Assembly (NCBI GenBank): GCA_945905925.1
Contig: CAMDQN010000008.1
Span: 1-64,000 of the forward strand
Direction: 5' to 3'
From: Singulisphaera sp. GP187
GTDB lineage: Bacteria > Planctomycetota > Planctomycetia > Gemmatales > Gemmataceae
Length of the DNA stretch: 64,000 bases
Positions 25,621 to 35,227 of the stretch are shown in pieces; the stretch's first letter is position 1; each line of letters begins with the position of its first letter. The position numbers and the translations under genes are program-made. The notes beneath the pieces are model-generated. The model was not told the origin of the DNA, searched no databases, and saw only the letters and a program-made list of their open reading frames with translations.

Positions 25621-28600
25621 ATGCGTTCCCTTCTCCGTACCCTTGCGCTGATGCTTTGCGCGGTTGTCGTCGCGATTCCATTTGTGTCCGCACAGCCCGC
25701 ACCGGGCGAGCCGACCGCCAACGACGTGAAAGCACTTCGCGAGAAGTTCCAGACCGAGCGCGAAGCGGCACTCAAAGCCAAGTTCCCGGCCGATACGCTC
25801 ACGAAGGCCGATGACATCGTGAAGCGCGCCGACGAGGCCGCGAAGACCGAGAACTTCAAGGCCGCGATGCGGCACCTGCGCGACGCACGCTGGCAACTCC
25901 CGTACCTGCCGCCCGGCCTGCCGCCGCACGTCACGCGCGTCCTCGGCGAGTCGCGAATGCGCCACGCGGACCGCGTCAACTCGCTCGCGTACAGCCCCGA
26001 CGGGTTGTACGTCGCCAGCGCGAGCCGCGACTTCAACGTGAAGATTTGGGACTTGGGCAACGGCCGCGAGATCGTCACCTATCGCGGCCACGTCGATCAA
26101 CAGGACGACCCCACTCGCGCGGGTACCAACGTACTCGGCGCCACCGACGTCGCGTTCCACCCGAAAGAGAAGATCGTCGCGTCTTCGAGCGGGAACCAAG
26201 TTCACACCTGGGATCCGACCACGGGCAAGCTTCTCAAGACACTCGTGAACCTCGGCAAGACGGACAAGCCCATCAAGGCGCTCGCGTTCAGCCCCGATGG
26301 GAAACTGCTCGCGATCGGCGCCGACGACGGCATCCTTCGTGTGGTCGAATCGGACACCGGCAAGGCGGTGTACACCAGCGCGTCGCGCAACGCCCGCGTC
26401 GAGCGCGTCGCGTTCAGCCCGAACGGGAAACTCGTGGCGCTCGGCGACAGCAATTCGCAAGTGGCGGTGTACGTCCCCGAAGGTAAGGGCAACCAACTCG
26501 CGATGAGCGTGCAGGGTGTGGATCTCGGCGAAGTGATGGGCGTCGGATTCAGTGCCGACAGCGGAAGCGTGTTTACGTGTGGGCGCGACGGCAAGGCCAG
26601 GCTCACGGCCGGGCCGAGTCCAGACGGCACGAGCGTCGGCAACACCGCGACCAAGCTCCGCGACTTCCTCGGTCACGATAAGGCCGTGACCGGGTTGGCC
26701 GTCACGAGCGACGGCAAGTTCCTCGTCACCAGCGGCGAAGACAAGACCGTGCGCGTGTGGGATGTTACGAGTGGGAAGTCGCTTCGGTCGTTCCAGGGCC
26801 ACATGACGAAGGCGACCGCGGTGGCCGTGCGCGGCGACGGGCGACAAGTCGCGTCCGCGTCCGACGACGGCGCGGTTCGGGTGTGGGACTTGAACACCAC
26901 CGACGAACACCGGGCGCTGACGGAGTCGAAAGAGTCTTTGTGGGCGGTCGCGATTGCTCCAAACGGGAAGCGGGTTGCGTCGGCCGGCGCGGACAAGAAG
27001 ATTCGCGTGTACGAACTGGAAACCGGCAAACTCGAAGCCACACTCGACGCGGGCGCCGCGATGACTTCACTCGTGTTCCTGCCGGACAGCAACCTGCTCG
27101 TCGCGGGCGGCGGCGACAAGGTGGTGAAGGTCTGGGACGTGACTGGCAAGAAGGTCGAGAAGGAACTGCCCGGCCACGCCCTCGCGGTACTCGCGCTCGG
27201 TGCTTCGGATGACGGCAAACTGGTGGTGTCCGGTTCGGCGGACTCGAGCGTTCGCGGGTTTGACCCTGCCGGGGGCAAGGAAGTGTGGAAGTGGATGTCG
27301 CGCAAAGCCGCGTGCGCCATCGCGATCCGCAAGGGGAGCAAGCAGGTCGCGGTCGGCATCGCGGACGGCGGACTGGTGATTTTGGACATCAGCGGAACCA
27401 CGCCGAAGGAAGTCTCCGCGCAGGGCGCGCACACGGCCGGAACGACGTGCGTCGCGTACAGCCCAGACGGGAACCGGCTCGCGAGCGTCGGCGGCGACGG
27501 CGCCCTTCGCGTCTGGTCCGTCGGCGAGAACGGCTCGCTCGTCCAACTGGTGAAGTTCGACGGACAGGCGACGCCGAACAGCACCACCGGGTTCTCGCCG
27601 CTGTCCACGGTCGCGTTCAGCCCCGACAACCGGTTCGTCGCGGCGGCCGGTGCGGACTCGGTCGTTCGCGTGTGGGACGTGCAGACCAAGAGCGAGGTTC
27701 GCGGCCTGCGCGGACACACGGACTGGGTGACTTCGGTCGCGTTCAGCCCGGACGGGCGGTTCGTCGCGTCCGTGGCCGCGGAGAAGGACAACACGCTCCG
27801 CGTGTTCGAGATTCCGCCGTTAGACAATGCGAGTGCGGCTGGCGGGCACCTGCTCGCGGTGAACGCGGTCGCCGTCAGCCCGAACGGAAAGTTCGTCGCG
27901 ACGGCCGCGACTGATCAGACGATCAAGGTGTGGGACATCGCGACCGGGAAGGAAGTGGCGACGCTCATCGGCAACGCGGACACACCGTTCGCGATCGCGT
28001 TTCTGGGTAACGACGGCGTGGTGATGGGCGGCAGTTTGCCGACGCGCGACACCGGCCGGTTGCACTTCTGGGGGACCACGCCGCCGCGCCTCGGCACATT
28101 GGTTGCAACCGGCGAAGTGTACACGGTCATGACTTCGACCGACGCCACGAAGATCGGCGCGTGGGCTTCGCGCCAGGCCGTCGGCGACACGGTGAAGAAC
28201 AACGCTTATGAGATTTACGACGCGAAGGGCAAGTTGCTCTCTTCGACGCCGGACAAGAGCCGGAACGTGCGATCCGCGACATTCACAGCGGACCTCGCGT
28301 GGGCCGTGGCCGGTGACGAGTCCGGCACCGTGCGCGTCTTCGACCTGGCGACGAAGGAGCGAATTGGCGGCGACTGGCCGCTGTTCCAGCGGAGCTTCGC
28401 GGACCTCGGCGTGACCGCGGACAAGAAGTACCTGGTCGCGTCCGACGACGAAGGTCTGGTGAAGGTGGCCGAGATCGCGAAGCGTGAAGTGGTGGCCGAC
28501 GGCAATGCACACAAGACCGGCGTGCGTGTGCTGGTCGTGTCGCCGACCGGCAAGACCTTCGTCACGATTAGCAATGACCGCGAAATCAAGGCGTGGTCGT

Positions 28601-28746
28601 TAACGGAGTTCAAGAACAAGAAGGTCACCGAAGTTCGCTCGTGGACCGTGCCCGTGACGATCAACGGTGCCGTGTACACGCCGGACGGGAAGTCGGTGGT
28701 CACCGCGAACGCCGACGGCACCGCTTACGTTCTGGAACTGCCGTGA
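25621..28746 (+). CDS. Large exported WD40-repeat protein
   Basis: A 1041-residue protein. Signal peptide (RTLALMLCAVVVAIPFVSAQ, residues 6-25) and a helical segment (about 35-90) lead into at least twelve WD40 repeats recognised by blades such as VKIWDLGNGREIVTYRGH, VRVWDVTSGKSLRSFQGH, VRVWDLNTTDEHRALTES, VKVWDVTGKKVEKELPGH, VRVWDVQTKSEVRGLRGH and IKVWDIATGKEVATLIGN. Two seven-bladed propellers would account for the number. Planctomycetes have many such proteins, inferred to be interaction scaffolds. ATG at 25621 follows GTGTGAGGCCACC. It lies just upstream of the WXG100 cluster with a long hairpin between, so co-transcription is possible but unproven. Confidence 0.88.
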   Translation: MRSLLRTLALMLCAVVVAIPFVSAQPAPGEPTANDVKALREKFQTEREAALKAKFPADTLTKADDIVKRADEAAKTENFKAAMRHLRDARWQLPYLPPGLPPHVTRVLGESRMRHADRVNSLAYSPDGLYVASASRDFNVKIWDLGNGREIVTYRGHVDQQDDPTRAGTNVLGATDVAFHPKEKIVASSSGNQVHTWDPTTGKLLKTLVNLGKTDKPIKALAFSPDGKLLAIGADDGILRVVESDTGKAVYTSASRNARVERVAFSPNGKLVALGDSNSQVAVYVPEGKGNQLAMSVQGVDLGEVMGVGFSADSGSVFTCGRDGKARLTAGPSPDGTSVGNTATKLRDFLGHDKAVTGLAVTSDGKFLVTSGEDKTVRVWDVTSGKSLRSFQGHMTKATAVAVRGDGRQVASASDDGAVRVWDLNTTDEHRALTESKESLWAVAIAPNGKRVASAGADKKIRVYELETGKLEATLDAGAAMTSLVFLPDSNLLVAGGGDKVVKVWDVTGKKVEKELPGHALAVLALGASDDGKLVVSGSADSSVRGFDPAGGKEVWKWMSRKAACAIAIRKGSKQVAVGIADGGLVILDISGTTPKEVSAQGAHTAGTTCVAYSPDGNRLASVGGDGALRVWSVGENGSLVQLVKFDGQATPNSTTGFSPLSTVAFSPDNRFVAAAGADSVVRVWDVQTKSEVRGLRGHTDWVTSVAFSPDGRFVASVAAEKDNTLRVFEIPPLDNASAAGGHLLAVNAVAVSPNGKFVATAATDQTIKVWDIATGKEVATLIGNADTPFAIAFLGNDGVVMGGSLPTRDTGRLHFWGTTPPRLGTLVATGEVYTVMTSTDATKIGAWASRQAVGDTVKNNAYEIYDAKGKLLSSTPDKSRNVRSATFTADLAWAVAGDESGTVRVFDLATKERIGGDWPLFQRSFADLGVTADKKYLVASDDEGLVKVAEIAKREVVADGNAHKTGVRVLVVSPTGKTFVTISNDREIKAWSLTEFKNKKVTEVRSWTVPVTINGAVYTPDGKSVVTANADGTAYVLELP

Positions 28747-28751
28747 CCGTC

Positions 28752-28836
28752 GAAGAGAGGGGGAGAGGGGGTGAAGGGGAGACGAAGACAGGTTCGCTGC
28801 CTTTGTCTCCCCTTCACCCCTTCTCCCCCTCTCTTC
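28752..28836. repeat. Long purine/pyrimidine inverted repeat
   Basis: Arms of about 37-40 bases, purine-rich GAAGAGAGGGGGAGA... and its near complement, with TTCGCTG between, 5 bases after the WD40 stop. A very strong hairpin, probable terminator; family resembles the other GGGAGGGG-type elements of this window. Confidence 0.85.
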
Positions 28837-28896: not shown

Positions 28897-29169
28897 ATGT
28901 CACAGGCCATCGTGGACCCGGCCGAAGTGCGGCGGTTCGCCAGCAACCTGAAGCGGTTCAACGCCGACCTGCAATCCGCCATCGCCGGTCTGCACGGCCA
29001 ACTCATGGCGCTGGGCGACAGTTGGCGCGACCAGGAACAGGACCGCTTTCGGCAAGAGTTCGAGGCGACCATGCTCGTGCTGGAACGCTTCATGGAAGTG
29101 TCCGGCGAACACGTCCCGTTCTTGCTCCGCAAGGCTGAGCGGATCGAAGAATACCTGTCGCAACGCTGA
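28897..29169 (+). CDS. WXG100-like type VII secretion substrate
   Basis: A 90-residue helical-hairpin protein. It has the WXG100 size, and SWRDQEQDRFRQEFE (about residues 41-55) places Trp at the turn where the family has Trp-X-Gly (here Trp-Arg-Asp). The first helix is RFASNLKRFNADLQSAIAGL and the second runs to ERFMEVSGEHVPFLLRKAER. WXG100 proteins are exported by FtsK/EccC-type ATPases or act as partners of them. ATG at 28897 follows AGAGG. An in-frame extension to 28771 is antisense hairpin sequence. It opens the four-gene cluster. Confidence 0.75.
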   Translation: MSQAIVDPAEVRRFASNLKRFNADLQSAIAGLHGQLMALGDSWRDQEQDRFRQEFEATMLVLERFMEVSGEHVPFLLRKAERIEEYLSQR

Positions 29170-29176
29170 CCCGTCT

Positions 29177-29251
29177 CAAGTTCGCAAGTCGCAAATCGCA
29201 AGTCCAAACCGGGCTGTTGACTTGGGACTTGGGACTTGGGACTTGAGACTT
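29177..29251. repeat. 7-bp tandem repeats (GACTTGG type)
   Basis: Left block 29177-29205 holds CAAGT-type units, right block 29219-29251 holds four GGGACTT-type units in direct 7-bp periodicity, and the two blocks are roughly complementary. The block runs to within 4 bases of the next start codon and replaces any normal ribosome binding site. Confidence 0.8.
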
Positions 29252-29254
29252 CCC

Positions 29255-29884
29255 ATGTCCGCCGACGTTCGCTCCATCGCCGCGGTGATCGACTGGCACG
29301 CGGCCCTCACCAACTACGGCGACGGGCTGGCTGAAGCCCTGGCCGGTGTCGATATGGAAATCCGCCGCGCGTTCGACTGGCTCGGCGAACAACTCACGCG
29401 CTGGCAGCGAGCCGTGCGCGACTGCGAAGAAGAAGTCATTCGCGCGAAAGCGGAACTGTCGCAGCGGAAACTCCCCACCTGGGACGGTCGCGACCCCGAT
29501 TGCACCGTTCAGGAGAAGGCGCTCAGGCTCGCGAAGGCACGGAAGGAGCACGCGGAAGAGAAAGTCGAAACCGTGCGCCGGTGGATCGGGCGGTTACCGA
29601 AATTGGTGGACGAGACGTACACCGGGCCGTCGCGCCGGCTCAAGTCGATGCTCGAACTCGACCTGCCCAACGCGCTCACGGAACTCACGCGGCGCATCGG
29701 AGCGCTGGAGAGGTACGCGGGGTTGCGACCGGACTACGCACCGCTGCAACCTCTCCCCCCAACTCCCTCCCCTAAGAAGGGAGGGGGAGAAAGAGAAGAA
29801 TCGCGAGCGCCAGCGAGCGATACTCCCCCTCCCTTCTTAGGGGAGGGGGCCGGGGGGAGAGGTTCTTCTGGAGGCGAGCAATGA
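29255..29884 (+). CDS. Coiled-coil protein of WXG100/FtsK cluster
   Basis: A 209-residue protein not matched to any named family. Residues 1-165 are nearly all helical: AVIDWHAALTNYGDGLAEAL, then EIRRAFDWLGEQLTRWQRAV, KAELSQRKLPTWDGRDP and EKVETVRRWIGRLPKLVDET. The last part (about 165-205, PLPPTPSPKKGGG...) is low-complexity and is encoded by a GC-rich inverted repeat that invaded the gene end. The ATG at 29255 begins at the end of a 7-bp repeat block. Its stop overlaps the next start (ATGA), so the genes are coupled. It could bridge the WXG100 protein and the ATPase; no direct evidence. Confidence 0.65.
   Translation: MSADVRSIAAVIDWHAALTNYGDGLAEALAGVDMEIRRAFDWLGEQLTRWQRAVRDCEEEVIRAKAELSQRKLPTWDGRDPDCTVQEKALRLAKARKEHAEEKVETVRRWIGRLPKLVDETYTGPSRRLKSMLELDLPNALTELTRRIGALERYAGLRPDYAPLQPLPPTPSPKKGGGEREESRAPASDTPPPFLGEGAGGRGSSGGEQ
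29750..29862. repeat. Inverted repeat inside coding sequence
   Basis: Arms 29750-29788 and 29823-29862 (CTCCCTCCCCTAAGAAGGGA core) around a 34-base centre. Translated in frame as PLPPTPSPKKGGGE and PPPFLGEGAGGRG. Related to other GGGAGGGG palindromes at 46.9, 56.1 and 63.4 kb. Confidence 0.88.
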
Positions 29885-30102
29885 AATTCGGTGCCACGCG
29901 GAGCCAGATCTACGACGCACAGAAGACCGCGCGCGCGAAGTGGAACGAGACGCTCGACACCTGGAACGACCCCGTTCACGCGAAGCACGGCGAGGAGACC
30001 GTCGAACCACTCGACGACGCGGTTAGCAACGAACTGCGCGCGATCGACCAACTGTCCGTGCTGTTCACGCAGATTCGCCAAGAGTGTGAGTTCCCATCAT
30101 AA
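29881..30102 (+). CDS. 73-aa protein of WXG100/FtsK cluster
   Basis: MKFGATRSQIYDAQKTARAK then ...DPVHAKHGEETVEPLDDAVS and a helical end (NELRAIDQLSVLFTQIRQEC). Small, acidic at the centre, helical; not recognised. Start overlaps the stop of the previous gene by ATGA; the ATPase starts 63 bases later. In T7SS-like loci small partners of this size often pair with the WXG100 protein, which is an inference here. Confidence 0.7.
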   Translation: MKFGATRSQIYDAQKTARAKWNETLDTWNDPVHAKHGEETVEPLDDAVSNELRAIDQLSVLFTQIRQECEFPS

Positions 30103-30165
30103 GTCTTCCGTCGCGCCACTCCCGCGTTTATCGTGGGCCTGGTATTCGTCCGTTTACGGTGCAGC

Positions 30166-33100
30166 ATGTCCGACAACCTTTTCGATAAGCAGCGGGCCGC
30201 GCTCGCGGGCCTATCCGACACCGCCCGCGTGCGGACCGCCGCCGCCGCGGAACTCACGGCCGCGTTCCAGACGACGAGCGAGAAGGCCGAGCGCGAGGTT
30301 TCGCGCGCGCGGAAGGCACACGCGGCGGCGCGCGAACGGGAACTCGGCGAACTCGAGTCCGAGCGCGCCGCGACCCAGGAGCGCCTCGCGAAAGACTTTA
30401 CCGCCGAGCAACTCACCAACGACCGCGCCCGCGACGAGCGCCGGAAACTGATCACGGACCGCTTCCACGCCGCGCAAAAGAACGGGCAAACCAAGTACGA
30501 CGAACAAATCTGGAGCCACAACACACTGCTCGAAGCCGGCGAGAAGACCGCGAAGGAGCAACTCGACACGCTTCAACGGAAGGCCGCCGCCGGGCGCGAA
30601 CAGGTCGATGCGGTTTGGCTCGAAACCGAACCACTCTTGAATCGCGGTCGCGTTCCGAAAACGGAAGTGGACTTCGCGGGCGAACTGCCCGCGCCTACCG
30701 ACGACGACCCGATCAAGCGCATGAACAAAGGGCTTGCCGCAGCCGAAGCGACCAGCGCGAGGTTGCGCGCCGCGAAGTCGCCTGGTTGGGGAAGCCCGGT
30801 GCGGTTGGTTGTCCTGTTCATTCCGTTCGCGGGCCTTGGCGCGACCGCGTTCGCGTTCGCGGACCCGCTGACCTCGGGCATCGTCACGGTGTGCGTTGGC
30901 CTCGTGTTTGGTCTTGCTTCGTGGCTACTCCTTCGCTCGCTCGGTCGGCGCGTTACGGTGCGTGAGGGGAAGAAGATCGCGGAGCAACTTGCGGAAGCGA
31001 CGCGCTCGTGTCAGTTGCTCCGCGACTACGCCGCGACTGAGTTCGTCGCCGCGAGCCGGCGCCTCGCGGAGAAACACGACCGCGCCCGGCAGCGCACAGA
31101 CGAGTATTACGTTCCGCTTCTCGCGTCACAGAAGCAACAGTTCGACGAGGAAATTCTGCGTGTCGAAGCGGAGTTCGCAACGGTGGCCGAGCGCATCCGC
31201 CGCAAACGCGACAACGAAACGCGAGCGGCCGACGAACGCTACCACACGAAGAGGAGCGAGATCGAAACGCGGCTCGGCGCGGAACTGAACGCCGCGGAAA
31301 CAACGTTCGCCGAGAAGATGTCCACGGCGACCGCCGCCCGCGATGCCGCGTGGAACACGATGGCCGGCGCATGGAACAGCACAACGCACGCTGTCGCGAA
31401 CACGTTCACCGAACTTCGCGAAGCGGGCGCCGCGACCTTCCCAAACTGGGACGCTCTTCCCGCTCGCGCCCTTGCGGACCGCGTGCCGGACGGCATTCGC
31501 TTCGGCGCGCTGAACGTTGACCTGAGCGCGATCACCGACGCGGTTCCGACGGACGATCGCCTGGTCCCGCCGCCCGCGCTCAGCGGCGACGTGCCCGCGT
31601 TCCTGCCGTTCCCGGATCGGTGTTCGGTACTGATGCGCTGTCGCGAGGAGGGCCGCGCCGCGGGCGTGTCGGCGCTGCAAGCGATGATGCTCCGATTCCT
31701 CACCGGGTTGCCGGCGGGCAAGGTGCGGTTCACCATCGTCGATCCGGTGAGTCTCGGCGACAACTTCGGCGCGTTCATGCACCTCGCGGATTTCGACGAG
31801 AAACTGATCACTTCGCAAATCTGGACCGAGGCGCGCGACATCGAGCAGCGGCTCGCGGACCTCACCGACCACACCGCGAGCGTGATTCAGAAGTACCTGC
31901 GCAACCAGTACAAGTCGATCGAGGAGTACAACAAGGCGGCGGGCGAAGTGGCCGAACCGTACCGCGTGCTGGTGGTCGCGAACTTCCCGAACAACTTCAC
32001 GCCTGAGGCCGCGAAGCGGCTCGTGAGCCTCGCGAGTAGCGGCCCGTCGTGCGGCGTGTGCGTGCTCGTTACGGCCGACACGCGCGCCGCGATGCCGCGC
32101 GACTTCAACATCGCGGACCTCGAAGCCGCGAGTTACACGCTCGTGTGGAAGGAAGGAAAGTTCGCGCCGAAAGACCCGGTGCTCGCGCCGTTCCCGCTGA
32201 CGCTCGACGTACCGCCGGCGACCGCGACCGTGGCCGCGATCGTGCAGCGCATTGGCAAGGGAAGCAAGGACGCCGCGCGCGTGGAGGTGCCGTTCGAGTA
32301 CATCGCCCCGAAGCCATCCGACATCTGGACAGGCAGCGCGGCGAAGGGTTTTGAAGTGGCCGTCGGGCGCGCCGGGGCGACGCGAAAGCAGATGTTCTCG
32401 CTCGGGCGCGGCACGGCGCAGCACGCGGTCGTCACGGGGAAAACCGGCTCGGGTAAGTCCACGCTGCTGCACGCGCTCATCACGAACCTCGCGCTGATGT
32501 ACAGCCCCGACGAGGCGGAACTGTACCTCATCGACTTCAAGGAAGGCGTCGAGTTCCAGTGGTACGCGACCTACCGCTTACCTCACGCGCGCGTCGTCGC
32601 GATCCAGAGTGAACGCGAGTTCGGTCTCAGTGTGCTCCAACGGCTCGACGGCATCCTGCGCGAGCGCGGCGAGAAGTTCCGCGACGCCGGCGTGAACGAC
32701 CTCGCGGGTTACCGGATCGCGAAACCAGAAGAGAAGACACCGCGCATTCTGCTCGTGATCGACGAGTTCCAGGCGTTCTTCACGGAAGACGACAAGCTCT
32801 CACAAGAAGCATCTTTGCTCCTCGACCGGTTGGTGCGGCAGGGTCGCGCGTTCGGGCTTCACGTGTTGCTCGGTTCGCAGACGCTTGGCGGGGCGTATTC
32901 GCTCGCGCGAAGCACCATCGACCAGATGGCGGTTCGCGTTGCGCTTCAGTGTTCGGACGCCGACGCGCAACTCATTCTGAGCAAGGACAACACCGCGGCG
33001 CGGCTGCTGTCACGGCCCGGCGAGGCGATCTACAACGACCAGAACGGCCTCGTCGAAGGGAACGATCCGTTCCAGGTGGTGTGGCTCGCGGAGGAGAAGC

Positions 33101-34029
33101 GAGAGCAGGTTCTCGAAGACCTGCACAATCGCGCGGGTGACAAGTGGCCGGCACCGCTCGTGTTCAGCGGGAACACGTCGGCCGCGCTCGCAAACAACCC
33201 CGCGCTCGCGAAGCAACTCACAACGCCGACCCCGGTGAAGGTGCCCGGCGCGTGGCTCGGCGACCCGGTCGCGATCAAGGAACCGACGGCCGCGATATTC
33301 CGCGCGCACGGCGGTGCGAACCTGCTGATGGTAGGGCAGAGCGAAGACGCGGCCCGCGCGCTGTTCGTGTCGTCGCTGGTCAGCCTCGCGGCGCAATCGC
33401 CAGGTTCGCACTTCACCGTTCTCGACGGCACGCCGGACGACGCGGACGAAGCCGAGTACCTCCGCAAGCTCGCGGAGAAACTGCCGCACGCGAGCGCGCC
33501 GAACCGCGCTGGGCTGCCGGCGGCGCTCGCGGAACTCACGAGCGAGATCGAACACCGACAGAAAGGCGAAGCCGACCGCACGCCGCGCTTCGTACTCATC
33601 TTCGGTGTCCACCGGTTCCGCGAGCTCCGCAAAGCCGACGATGACTTTAGCTTCGGTCGAAAGGGCGAGCGCGAACCGTCGCCGGCCGAACGGCTCACGA
33701 CGATCCTCAAAGACGGCCCGCTCAGCGGGGTCCACGCGATCGTGTGGTGCGACTCGTTGGTGAACCTGAATCGCGCGTTCGACCGGCCGCTGTTGCGCGA
33801 GTTCGCGATGCGTGTGCTGTTCCAGATGAGCGCTACCGATTCCAGCACGCTGATGGACTCGCCCACCGCGTCGAAGCTCGGCAGGCACCGCGCGCTGTAC
33901 CTTCAGGACGAGCAAGAACGCCCGGAGAAATTCCGCCCCTACGGGTTGCCCTCCGCCGAGTGGCTGAACGGGACGTGCGCCACTCTCCGCACGCGACTCA
34001 CGTTGCGGTCGGAACCGGCCACAGTGTAG
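30166..34029 (+). CDS. FtsK/EccC-type ATPase with coiled-coil and membrane domain
   Basis: A 1287-residue ATPase. Residues 1-205 are Arg/Ala/Glu-rich coiled coil. Two membrane helices lie at about 213-260 (VVLFIPFAGLGATAFAF and VCVGLVFGLASWLLL). A second long coiled coil fills 265-410. The FtsK/SpoIIIE ATPase domain has Walker A TGKTGSGKSTLLHAL (about 756-770) and Walker B RILLVIDEFQAFF (about 858-870). A third, degenerate nucleotide-binding domain follows (LLMVGQSEDAARALFVSSL, about 1053-1071; no Lys in the loop) with a Walker B-like FVLIFGVHRF. One active plus one degenerate ATPase domain suits EccC-type export motors rather than a DNA translocase. ATG at 30166 is chosen; the GTG at 30133 is also possible. 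Confidence 0.88.
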   Translation: MSDNLFDKQRAALAGLSDTARVRTAAAAELTAAFQTTSEKAEREVSRARKAHAAARERELGELESERAATQERLAKDFTAEQLTNDRARDERRKLITDRFHAAQKNGQTKYDEQIWSHNTLLEAGEKTAKEQLDTLQRKAAAGREQVDAVWLETEPLLNRGRVPKTEVDFAGELPAPTDDDPIKRMNKGLAAAEATSARLRAAKSPGWGSPVRLVVLFIPFAGLGATAFAFADPLTSGIVTVCVGLVFGLASWLLLRSLGRRVTVREGKKIAEQLAEATRSCQLLRDYAATEFVAASRRLAEKHDRARQRTDEYYVPLLASQKQQFDEEILRVEAEFATVAERIRRKRDNETRAADERYHTKRSEIETRLGAELNAAETTFAEKMSTATAARDAAWNTMAGAWNSTTHAVANTFTELREAGAATFPNWDALPARALADRVPDGIRFGALNVDLSAITDAVPTDDRLVPPPALSGDVPAFLPFPDRCSVLMRCREEGRAAGVSALQAMMLRFLTGLPAGKVRFTIVDPVSLGDNFGAFMHLADFDEKLITSQIWTEARDIEQRLADLTDHTASVIQKYLRNQYKSIEEYNKAAGEVAEPYRVLVVANFPNNFTPEAAKRLVSLASSGPSCGVCVLVTADTRAAMPRDFNIADLEAASYTLVWKEGKFAPKDPVLAPFPLTLDVPPATATVAAIVQRIGKGSKDAARVEVPFEYIAPKPSDIWTGSAAKGFEVAVGRAGATRKQMFSLGRGTAQHAVVTGKTGSGKSTLLHALITNLALMYSPDEAELYLIDFKEGVEFQWYATYRLPHARVVAIQSEREFGLSVLQRLDGILRERGEKFRDAGVNDLAGYRIAKPEEKTPRILLVIDEFQAFFTEDDKLSQEASLLLDRLVRQGRAFGLHVLLGSQTLGGAYSLARSTIDQMAVRVALQCSDADAQLILSKDNTAARLLSRPGEAIYNDQNGLVEGNDPFQVVWLAEEKREQVLEDLHNRAGDKWPAPLVFSGNTSAALANNPALAKQLTTPTPVKVPGAWLGDPVAIKEPTAAIFRAHGGANLLMVGQSEDAARALFVSSLVSLAAQSPGSHFTVLDGTPDDADEAEYLRKLAEKLPHASAPNRAGLPAALAELTSEIEHRQKGEADRTPRFVLIFGVHRFRELRKADDDFSFGRKGEREPSPAERLTTILKDGPLSGVHAIVWCDSLVNLNRAFDRPLLREFAMRVLFQMSATDSSTLMDSPTASKLGRHRALYLQDEQERPEKFRPYGLPSAEWLNGTCATLRTRLTLRSEPATV

Positions 34030-34069: not shown

Positions 34070-35227
34070 ATGCTCAAAACCACTCCCCTTCGCATCGCGA
34101 TCATCGGCGCGGGCCCGATCGGTATCGAAGCGGCGCTGTACGCGAAGGCGTGCGGGTTCACGGTCGCGGTGTTCGATCGCGGTCCGGTTGGCGAACACCT
34201 GCGGCGCTGGGGCCACGCGAAGATGTTCACGCCGTTTGGCATGAACACCACGCCGCTCGGATTGGCCGAAGTGCGCCGCGAAAAGGGGTCGCGATCGATC
34301 CCCACGGAAACCGACCTGCTCACCGGGCGCGAGTTCCTCGCTGCCTACCTTCTGCCGCTCGCGGAATCCGAAACGCTCCTCGAGTCACTCAACCTCGAAG
34401 CCGCCGTGCTTCAAGTCGGGCGCGCCGCGAGCGTGAAGAAGTCGGAAGCGGTCGAGCGACTTCCGTTCCGGTTGCTCGTGCGCGACGGCGCGGGGGCGGA
34501 GCGCATCGAAACCGCGGATGTCGTTCTCGACTGCACGGGCACGTACATCACGCCGCAGCGCCTCGGCGACGGCAACATTCCCGCCGTCGGCGAACTCGCG
34601 GCGCGAGCACAAATCGCATGGGGATTGGAAGACATTCTTGGCGAGAAGCGGGCACACTACGCGGGCCGGAGCATCATCCTTGTGGGCGACGGCTATTCCG
34701 CAGCAGCGACTATCTGCGCGCTCGCGCAACTGGCCGAAGAAGCGAACGATACATGGGTATTCTGGCTTACGCGTGGGCCGCGTGGGCAGCCGCTTCCGCG
34801 CATCCCCAACGACCCGCTGAAGGAACGCGACCGGCTCGCGACGAAAGCGAACTCGCTCGCGACACGGTGCGACGGCAACCTCGAATTCCACCCGCAAACG
34901 GTTCTCGATGAAGTCATCTCGCACGGCCCGGACAAGGGCTTTCGCGTGGCTGGGCGGAGCAACAACAAGCCTGTGTCGTGGGAAGTCGAGCGCGTAATCG
35001 CGAGCGTGGGCTATCGCGCCGACTTGCGCATCAGCGACGGTCTTCGCGTGGCGGAATCGACCGGCACGCCGGAAACGGGTGAACCGAATTACTTCGTCCT
35101 CGGCGCGAAGAGCTTTGGTCGCGACTCGGGGTTTCTTCTGCGCGACGGTTTCAGTCAAATCCGCAAAGTGTTCGCGGCACTCACGGCAAATGCCCGTCTC
35201 GACCACTACGCGAAGAAAGCCGCGTGA
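34070..35227 (+). CDS. FAD/NAD(P)-binding oxidoreductase
   Basis: A 385-residue flavin oxidoreductase. RIAIIGAGPIGIEAALYAKA (about 8-27) is the FAD GxGxxG motif followed by the acidic strand end FDR. SIILVGDGYSAAATICALAQ (about 193-212) is a second dinucleotide site, and FFVLGAKSFGRDSGFLLRDG (about 345) closes the FAD domain. The pattern fits thioredoxin-reductase-like or lysine/ornithine monooxygenase-like enzymes; no redox-active CxxC is present, so a monooxygenase-type is more likely. ATG at 34070 follows GAGGGACAC. The cyclase-fold gene starts 80 bases after its stop, and in one reading overlaps it as GTGA, suggesting a pair. Confidence 0.82.
   Translation: MLKTTPLRIAIIGAGPIGIEAALYAKACGFTVAVFDRGPVGEHLRRWGHAKMFTPFGMNTTPLGLAEVRREKGSRSIPTETDLLTGREFLAAYLLPLAESETLLESLNLEAAVLQVGRAASVKKSEAVERLPFRLLVRDGAGAERIETADVVLDCTGTYITPQRLGDGNIPAVGELAARAQIAWGLEDILGEKRAHYAGRSIILVGDGYSAAATICALAQLAEEANDTWVFWLTRGPRGQPLPRIPNDPLKERDRLATKANSLATRCDGNLEFHPQTVLDEVISHGPDKGFRVAGRSNNKPVSWEVERVIASVGYRADLRISDGLRVAESTGTPETGEPNYFVLGAKSFGRDSGFLLRDGFSQIRKVFAALTANARLDHYAKKAA

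What the first reader, a model, noticed from the sequence alone, without database searches (positions are those of the whole stretch)
28897..34029. Compact type-VII-secretion-like locus with unknown partners
A WXG100-like protein, two unrecognised helical proteins (209 and 73 residues, start/stop overlap) and a 1287-residue ATPase with coiled coils, two membrane helices, one intact and one degenerate ATPase domain lie in one tight run. No EccB, EccD, EccE or mycosin homolog is seen. The ATPase has extra coiled coils where EccC has none, so this could be a distinct, minimal export machine of planctomycetes. It is the best candidate in the window for an undescribed system.
Basis: partly seen in the sequence, partly recalled or inferred. 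Interest (0 to 1): 0.78.

Follow-up and report, generated by a model that had tools for sequence, protein, structure and literature searches.

The report
Type-VII-like four-protein machine in planctomycetes
Many planctomycete bacteria carry a four-protein machine, a motor plus three small proteins related to those of type VII secretion, that is kept or lost as a set even when its genes lie far apart; what it moves is unknown.

Summary
In detail: four co-directional genes at 28897-34029 encode a WXG100-family protein, a 209-aa and a 73-aa helical protein, and an EccC-like ATPase. Corrections: the ATPase has one intact domain between two degenerate ones, and the 73-aa protein and first third of the 209-aa protein are profile-level relatives of the WXG100 protein.

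The order WXG-P209-P73-ATPase stands in 60 of 76 loci (6 of the other 16 are contig ends). In 294 sampled Planctomycetota genomes, 41 have the ATPase, 40 the WXG and 39 the P209, all inside the 41, none in the other 253. In some genomes the genes are scattered yet all present: one obligate machine.

It is not an undescribed kind: a 2012 footnote and later papers mention 'solo WXG' systems with a three-domain ATPase, only the middle domain active, planctomycetes included. New here: a membrane hairpin fused into the motor (lost in some relatives), a P209 without toxin domain, and co-retention of unlinked genes. A Helicobacter plasmid carries a related motor beside a nuclease and immunity-type gene. 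Export is the likeliest function but unproven: relatives lacking the membrane helices argue against it.

The parts
28897..29169 (+). WXG100-family protein P0001 (90 aa), W-R-D turn instead of W-x-G; nearest solved relative HP0062 of Helicobacter pylori
   Evidence: PF06013 4.9e-8; 39 of 39 family members match PF06013 at E<=1; PDB profile hit 3fx7 1.7e-12
29255..29884 (+). P209 (209 aa; conserved core residues 1-165, to 29749): two long helices (8-72, 84-157) predicted as a hairpin; first 49 columns related to the WXG protein; variable tail
   Evidence: AF2 pLDDT 92.9; hhalign to WXG 64%, E 6.4e-5, score 31.2 against 12.6 reversed and 14.9 best of 40 shuffles
29881..30102 (+). P73 (73 aa): second WXG100-like protein, invariant W28-x-D30, nearly invariant C69
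   Evidence: alignment; hhalign to WXG 88.7%, E 2.5e-6, score 34.4 against 16.1 reversed and 17.2 best of 40 shuffles; 8 of 41 members, not the window's own, touch PF06013, best 0.0013
30166..34029 (+). EccC-like three-domain ATPase (1287 aa)
30805..30933 (+). ATPase residues 214-256: two-helix membrane hairpin between two coiled-coil stretches (coiled coil by eye)
   Evidence: hydropathy 2.18 and 2.31; at least one helix in 68 of 76 planctomycete rows; absent in L045, L099, L095, L111
31582..32205 (+). degenerate ATPase domain D1 (about residues 473-680)
   Evidence: no Walker A in 76 of 76 rows; fold
32350..33135 (+). ATPase domain D2 with intact motifs (about residues 729-990; Walker A 758-765, Walker B ending D866-E867)
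   Evidence: Walker A in 76 of 76 rows
33157..34008 (+). degenerate ATPase domain D3 (about residues 998-1281)
   Evidence: no Walker A in 73 of 73 rows; fold
29748..29864 (.). inverted repeat (42-nt arms, 93% complementary) that encodes most of the P209 tail; not part of the conserved machine

Best explanation
The cassette is the planctomycete branch of the WXG100/three-domain-ATPase ('minimal type VII') kind. Shown by sequence or model: one FtsK/EccC-type motor domain with intact motifs flanked by two degenerate ones, preceded by coiled coils and usually a membrane hairpin; three partners of which two, and part of the third, are WXG100-related; all-or-nothing retention. Inferred: the ATPase forms a ring held at the inner membrane by its own two-helix hairpin. 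The WXG protein forms a four-helix antiparallel dimer like HP0062. P73 and P209 pair with it or dock on the degenerate ATPase domains, as EsxB docks on EccC (recalled). ATP hydrolysis in D2 moves the hairpin proteins (P209 as cargo or cargo carrier) across or into the inner membrane. On a Helicobacter plasmid the P209 position holds a nuclease with an immunity-type protein, and the CoCoNuT paper describes a coiled-coil nuclease there; the planctomycete version has lost, or never had, that toxin and serves a housekeeping role.
For: Same four-gene order in 60 of 76 loci, 6 of the 16 others being contig ends. Phyletic co-occurrence: ATPase 41, WXG 40, P209 39 of 294 genomes, all inside the 41, none in the other 253; Fisher p about 1e-48 and 1e-46, not corrected for phylogeny. 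WXG, P209 and P73 in 12 of 12 ATPase-bearing and 0 of 4 ATPase-free test genomes, though scattered in several. EccC/EssC the best models by sequence and the best Foldseek matches (4nh0 EccC 3.4e-32 over 945 columns, TM-score 0.38; FtsK 1.3e-15). WXG and P73 homology with controls. Membrane hairpin helices in 68 of 76 rows. Helicobacter plasmid with WXG, WHH nuclease PF14414 1.1e-11, SUKH-1 protein PF09346 1.6e-6, 77-aa protein, ATPase.
Against: No secretion data. The membrane hairpin is missing in L045, L099, L095 and L111, of which the first three have the full partner set and the last is cut at a contig end, and in the aligned region of all five plasmid relatives (three of those have one weak hydropathy window of 1.62-1.71 elsewhere, as strong as one inside D1 of the window's protein). 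No YxxxD/E on WXG (0 of 61) or P73 (0 of 64). No YukD/EccD-type domain in 94 of 95 genomes. VIA-align puts FtsK motors (Z 31.8, 277 residues, rmsd 2.7) above EssC (29.0, 489, 6.6) and EccC (28.1, 500, 7.6). P209 structure matches are generic coiled coils. P209 to the Rhodococcus 314-aa protein is weak (6.1e-4), and no match to the Helicobacter nuclease was listed.
Confidence: 0.47

Rival explanations
1. An intracellular ATPase-hairpin machine, not an exporter: the motor threads, assembles or releases helical-hairpin proteins (or protein-bound nucleic acid) inside the cell, with the membrane hairpin only an optional tether. In other phyla it would arm or release nuclease effectors in stress or defence islands.
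For: Clean loss of the membrane hairpin in L045/L099, L095 and L111 within Gemmataceae and its absence from the aligned region of the Caballeronia, Helicobacter, two Rhodococcus and Deinococcus relatives. Neighbours on plasmids include vWA, PP2C, kinase and CARF, TerD, with a TerD domain fused to one Rhodococcus ATPase at 4.4e-19, and Hsp70/GrpE. PMC11090510 also notes that the CoCoNuT-linked ATPases lack membrane helices (passages).
Against: Membrane helices are retained in 68 of 76 planctomycete rows. A separate membrane protein is encoded directly upstream of the shorter ATPase in L138 and, judged by eye from its sequence, in Deinococcus, as if the tether matters. The SUKH-1 gene beside the Helicobacter nuclease fits an exported toxin.
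Confidence: 0.32
2. A toxin-delivery cassette that has lost its toxin: P209 is the leftover targeting domain and the system is decaying or only occasionally re-armed.
For: P209 ends after the hairpin core plus a variable tail (61 loci; tail median 18, longest 88 residues), while on the Helicobacter plasmid the equivalent position carries a nuclease.
Against: No decay seen: Walker A intact in 76 of 76 rows, co-retention over a phylum, and one P209 match each in the 17 genomes with a match out of 19 searched in the window's genus, so no second, armed copy there.
Confidence: 0.11
3. A DNA translocase of the FtsK/SpoIIIE or conjugal TcpA type that happens to carry WXG-like partners.
For: Highest VIA-align Z for the active domain is to FtsK (31.8 against 29.0 and 28.1).
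Against: The four FtsK/TcpA-type rows (labels partly mine) form a clade without it (98/93). NCBIfam FtsK 0.0059 against EccC 2.5e-28. A second, FtsK-like match exists in the genome. Three tandem domains and WXG100 partners are EccC traits.
Confidence: 0.06

Closest known systems
'Solo WXG' systems with a three-domain YueA/EssC-like ATPase (Zhang et al. 2012 Table 1 footnote 6, PMC3482391; CoCoNuT extensions, PMC11090510; H. pylori HP0062/HP0066 'WXG100 secretion system', PMC4978471)
   Same: WXG100 protein, second WXG100-like protein without the classical motif, helical protein at the cargo position, three FtsK-like domains with only the middle one active, N-terminal coiled coil. The 2012 footnote names planctomycetes.
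   Different: Planctomycete motor mostly has a fused membrane hairpin; P209 has no nuclease end; no immunity-type or TerY-P gene beside the window's cassette (by eye; neighbours elsewhere were clustered but not annotated); genes may be scattered but are co-retained. The 2012 footnote calls such systems mobile versions of T7SS.
Type VII secretion systems (T7SSa ESX, T7SSb Ess/Yuk, T7SSc-j of PMC11217815)
   Same: EccC/EssC-like tandem-domain ATPase and WXG100 protein.
   Different: No YukD/EccD-type domain found in 94 of 95 genomes; three ATPase-like domains here against the four C-terminal NTPase domains that PMC11217815 counts; diderm phylum; coiled coils flank the membrane hairpin.
HP0062 of Helicobacter pylori (PDB 3fx7, 2gts)
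   Same: Best solved relative of the WXG family (1.7e-12); W-R-D at the bend; clusters with an FtsK-type gene according to PMC3397514.
   Different: The H. pylori cluster includes a nuclease of the HNH/EndoVII superfamily and a DnaK homologue according to PMC4978471; neither is part of the conserved planctomycete unit.

Membership tests
WXG100 / ESAT-6 superfamily (P0001) | Pfam PF06013 above its cut-off | tested here: met
   33.6 bits against 27.3; all 39 members match at E<=1
WXG100 / ESAT-6 superfamily (P0001) | W-x-G at the bend | tested here: not met
   W-R/Q-D in 61 of 61; solved HP0062 has WRD too (PMC3397514)
WXG100 / ESAT-6 superfamily (P73) | profile homology to WXG100 | tested here: met
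   hhalign to the WXG profile 88.7%, controls; but only 8 of 41 members touch PF06013, best 0.0013, and the window's own does not
Type VII secretion system | EccC/EssC-like ATPase with tandem FtsK domains | tested here: met
   but separate clade from EccC and NCBIfam scores far below the EccC cut-offs
Type VII secretion system | pattern of active domains as in EssC (D1 and D2 active, PMC11090510) | tested here: inconclusive
   Walker A in D1 0 of 76, D2 76 of 76, D3 0 of 73; which EccC/EssC domain each corresponds to is not settled: D2 matches EccC first and second domains equally (49.0 and 49.3 bits)
Type VII secretion system | YukD/EsaB/EccD ubiquitin-like partner | tested here: not met
   1 of 95 genomes, not the window's; control rang in Bacillus subtilis
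Type VII secretion system | EccB or equivalent membrane partners | tested here: inconclusive
   PF05108 0 of 19, but no control genome rang; EccE, mycosin, EssA and EssB not searched
Type VII secretion system | YxxxD/E export signal on substrates | tested here: not met
   WXG 0 of 61, P73 0 of 64, P209 (trimmed core) 3 of 61 in the last 30 residues; the broader HxxxD/ExxhxxxH pattern of PMC3935865 in 30 of 61 WXG proteins, with my own hydrophobic set and no chance control
Type VII secretion system | secretion of the WXG100 protein dependent on the ATPase | not testable with these tools
   needs an experiment
Solo-WXG / three-domain YueA-like ATPase kind | three FtsK/HerA domains, only the middle one active | tested here: met
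   (activity judged from motifs)
Solo-WXG / three-domain YueA-like ATPase kind | WXG100 protein plus a second WXG-like protein | tested here: met
Solo-WXG / three-domain YueA-like ATPase kind | mobile element | tested here: inconclusive
   leans against: families f1 (22 rows), f2 (10), f68 (3), f13 (3) each one clade in the ATPase tree, f49 (5) not; 76 of 95 Gemmataceae at E<=1e-30; but patchy in the phylum and no marker-gene tree
Solo-WXG kind, CoCoNuT form | nuclease-bearing coiled-coil cargo; no membrane helices in the ATPase | tested here: not met
   P209 ends after the hairpin and a tail of at most 88 residues; membrane helices in 68 of 76 rows
FtsK/SpoIIIE DNA translocase | falls inside the FtsK clade | tested here: not met
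   four-row FtsK/TcpA clade 98/93 excludes it; the family itself 93/95

The most novel reading that the evidence does not exclude
A conserved housekeeping machine built from type-VII-like parts that is not a toxin exporter and perhaps not an exporter at all: a motor plus three WXG100-like or hairpin partners, kept or lost as a unit across a diderm phylum even when the genes are scattered, with a membrane hairpin that evolution adds or removes. That would make type VII secretion one specialisation of an older hairpin-handling ATPase.
Probability: 0.3. Interest if true: 0.85.

Novelty: new variant of a known kind. Interest (0 to 1): 0.6.

Why it matters
Type VII secretion is usually described from Actinomycetota and Bacillota, with several membrane partners. 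Here the two universal parts plus two helper proteins form a unit that part of a diderm phylum keeps all-or-nothing, with no toxin gene in the conserved unit. Being so small, it is a clean place to ask what the EccC-like motor and WXG100 hairpins do by themselves. The relatives that lost the membrane hairpin make 'is membrane insertion needed?' directly testable.

Tried and rejected
Rejected: an undescribed kind (footnote and passages). Rejected: a conserved operon with the WD40 gene 25621-28746 or the downstream genes; WD40-type neighbours recur in 24 loci at varied places and the downstream gene at 35083 in 11 loci, mostly of the window's genus (whose clusters are polluted by spurious ORFs on high-GC DNA and were not annotated). 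Rejected: a defence-system label; the strongest PADLOC hits (SspH 1.1e-26, mad8 2.4e-20, HerA 1.4e-6) lie on the FtsK domain, and LeoBC (0.0011) on the coiled coil. Considered: an anti-phage or stress role through the TerY-P-like setting of the Caballeronia locus; I recognised no such genes beside the window's cassette, but neighbours of the other loci were not annotated.

Led nowhere: Foldseek and VIA-align on P209 give generic coiled coils. The first iterative HMM search mixed the three small families and was replaced by clean profiles. The EccC third domain of one row was dropped from the second tree because of its branch length of 10; with it, the family needs two changes instead of one. 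The five plasmid rows are long branches in the ATPase tree, so the order among phyla is unsure. The own-genome FtsK was meant for the tree, but the script found no ORF and it is missing. The gaps between P209 and P73 printed were measured from the trimmed P209 core and are not used. Paper searches for print precedents; in their listings I saw no paper on this planctomycete cassette itself. Anantharaman 2012 was not read; it is known only as cited in PMC11090510.


Full report
WHAT IS THERE. The four genes lie as described on the + strand. WXG starts at 28897, P209 at 29255, P73 overlaps P209's stop by 4 nt, and the ATPase ATG is at 30166. A 40-nt-arm inverted repeat (28752-28836) sits between the upstream WD40 gene and WXG, so I take the unit to start at WXG. 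The WXG-P209 gap runs from -4 to 353 nt over 60 loci (starts guessed).

ATPASE. Pfam finds FtsK_SpoIIIE at 729-906 (1e-30). NCBIfam gives EccCa 2.5e-28, EccCb 3.6e-28, EssC 1.9e-25 and FtsK 0.0059, all below the curated cut-offs. AF2 of residues 440-1287 on 48 sequences (pLDDT 89.8, pTM 0.73) shows three ATPase-like domains. Foldseek ranks EccC 4nh0 first (3.4e-32, 945 columns, TM-score 0.38), then EssC 4lya 1.0e-21 and FtsK 1.3e-15. VIA-align, in which single-domain matches weigh more, ranks FtsK 31.8 above EssC 29.0 and EccC 28.1. Walker A is kept only in the middle domain: 76 of 76 planctomycete rows for D2, 0 of 76 for D1, 0 of 73 for D3; in the five plasmid relatives D2 4, D1 0, D3 0. In the D2 tree the family is one clade (93/95), apart from four FtsK/TcpA-type rows (98/93; labels partly mine) and from EccC, whose four rows hang together weakly (52/0). 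With the degenerate EccC third domain left in, the family needs two changes.

SMALL PROTEINS. The WXG profile (39 sequences) matches H. pylori HP0062 (3fx7 1.7e-12; 2gts 4.3e-12) best, then EsxB and EsxA. Its bend is W-R-D or W-Q-D in 61 of 61. P73 has invariant W28 and D30 and a nearly invariant C69. hhalign relates P73 to WXG (88.7%, score 34.4; reversed 16.1, best of 40 shuffles 17.2) and the first 49 columns of P209 to WXG (64%, score 31.2; 12.6 and 14.9). As helical controls, WXG against the two ATPase coiled coils scores 10.8 and 12.3 (reversed 14.7 and 15.5); the highest control pairing of all was P209 against the second coiled coil, 18.5. P209 and P73 do not match each other. P209's core is predicted as two helices of 65 and 74 residues, pLDDT 92.9. 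P73 and WXG were not folded.

CONSERVATION. ATPase relatives at E<=1e-30 occur in 76 of 95 Gemmataceae genomes; the 19 without lie in genera g25, g26, g30, g35 and g36 plus one genome of g9 at 69% completeness (my count from its table; the family name is taken from record titles). In an even draw of 294 Planctomycetota genomes, the window's included, 41 have the ATPase at 1e-20, 40 the WXG at 1e-5 and 39 the P209 at 1e-5. Both lists lie wholly inside the 41. Missing are G313 (80% complete; both) and G201 (P209). None of the 253 others has either. Fisher p is 1e-48 and 1.3e-46, without correction for kinship. P73 was not searched in this draw. Copies are nearly always single; G170 has two long ATPase matches. 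Of 80 loci examined, 76 were non-redundant and 60 had all three partners in order on the same strand. Of the 16 others, L034, L041, L042, L044, L101 and L111 are cut short at contig ends; ten are real exceptions (L096, L112, L118, L120, L125, L129, L131, L136, L137, L138). Whole-genome searches of the genomes behind nine of these ten (not G201, L138) found the missing genes elsewhere: 12 of 12 ATPase-bearing test genomes have WXG, P209 and P73, and 0 of 4 ATPase-free ones. In G199 all four genes are far apart (ATPase near 0.23 Mb, WXG 0.71, P73 1.94, P209 2.66). In the ATPase tree, families f1, f2, f13 and f68 are each one clade, f49 is not. This looks like a resident machine rather than a mobile cassette, although no marker-gene tree was made.

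MEMBRANE HAIRPIN. Two adjacent helices at 214-256. By hydropathy, 47 of 76 planctomycete rows show two, 21 one and 8 none in that region. Of the eight, L041 is cut by a contig end, L138 has a separate 142-aa membrane protein upstream, L135 reads out of frame there, L100 is borderline (1.52), and L045, L099, L095 and L111 lack the stretch while the flanking sequence continues. L099 and L095 come from single-contig genomes. None of the five plasmid ATPases has it in the aligned region; three show one weak window elsewhere (1.62-1.71). This is the main evidence against simple export.

OUTSIDE PLANCTOMYCETES. tblastn in plasmids found relatives over much of the core (504-1262 in Rhodococcus at 3e-104; also Deinococcus, Helicobacter, a second Rhodococcus, Caballeronia). 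The Helicobacter sp. NHP19-012 plasmid reads WXG, a 340-aa protein with a WHH nuclease end (PF14414 1.1e-11), SUKH-1 protein (1.6e-6), 77-aa protein, ATPase. Caballeronia reads vWA, WXG, 436-aa, 113-aa and 76-aa proteins, ATPase, CARF protein, vWA, PP2C, kinase; its 436-aa protein and the 314-aa protein of Rhodococcus have no Pfam match at 0.05. The Rhodococcus AH-ZY2 ATPase carries an N-terminal TerD domain (4.4e-19). WXG homologues are clear in four of the five (3.4e-25 to 4.5e-8). P209 homology reaches only 6.1e-4 in Rhodococcus and none was listed for the Helicobacter nuclease. That P209 and these proteins are the same part is therefore positional inference.

PRINT. [quoted passage not shown] pylori 'WXG100 secretion system'), PMC3935865, PMC7159879. 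Seen as abstract, outline, discussion section and passages: PMC11217815.. In what I read the kind is known but untested, and the planctomycete form has that one footnote.

MECHANISM. Shown: part list, single domain with intact motifs, homology, co-retention. Inferred: ring assembly, docking, export, loss of toxin. I put four-part obligate machine at about 0.9 and export by it at about 0.5.

Noticed in passing
window 29748-29864; tails of P209 in L032, L035, L036, L047: The tail of P209 is largely made by a palindromic repeat with 42-nt arms; by eye, relatives carry similar repeat-like but different tails, as if such elements insert here repeatedly.
   Followed up: partly
window 28752-28836: A second long inverted repeat (40-nt arms, 5-nt loop) lies between the WD40 gene and the WXG gene.
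   Followed up: no
L138 7958-11628: A split version: WXG, then a separate 142-aa membrane protein, then an ATPase lacking that part; no P209 found in this genome at 1e-5.
   Followed up: partly
L045, L099, L095, L111 (ATPase N-terminal part): Loss of the membrane hairpin while the flanking sequence continues.
   Followed up: partly
L144 5746-10148 (Helicobacter sp. plasmid): WXG, WHH-type nuclease, SUKH-1 protein, 77-aa protein and ATPase in one run: a candidate toxin-immunity pair served by this kind of motor in a diderm.
   Followed up: partly
L142 6489-10457 (Rhodococcus plasmid): ATPase of the same family with an N-terminal TerD domain, next to TerD and DUF475 genes.
   Followed up: partly
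window 29881-30102 (P73 residue 69): A nearly invariant cysteine close to the C-terminus of P73, unexplained.
   Followed up: no
G170 C126 788-3697 and C138 11421-14960: One genome with two long ATPase matches but a single WXG match.
   Followed up: no
phage record MT836827.1, 2583-5384: A fecal 'Bacteriophage sp.' record encodes a relative of the Caballeronia ATPase over residues 152-748 (E 7e-44); may be a mislabelled contig.
   Followed up: no
L141 (G014 C13 5071-5271): The only YukD-like (PF08817) match among 95 Gemmataceae genomes.
   Followed up: no
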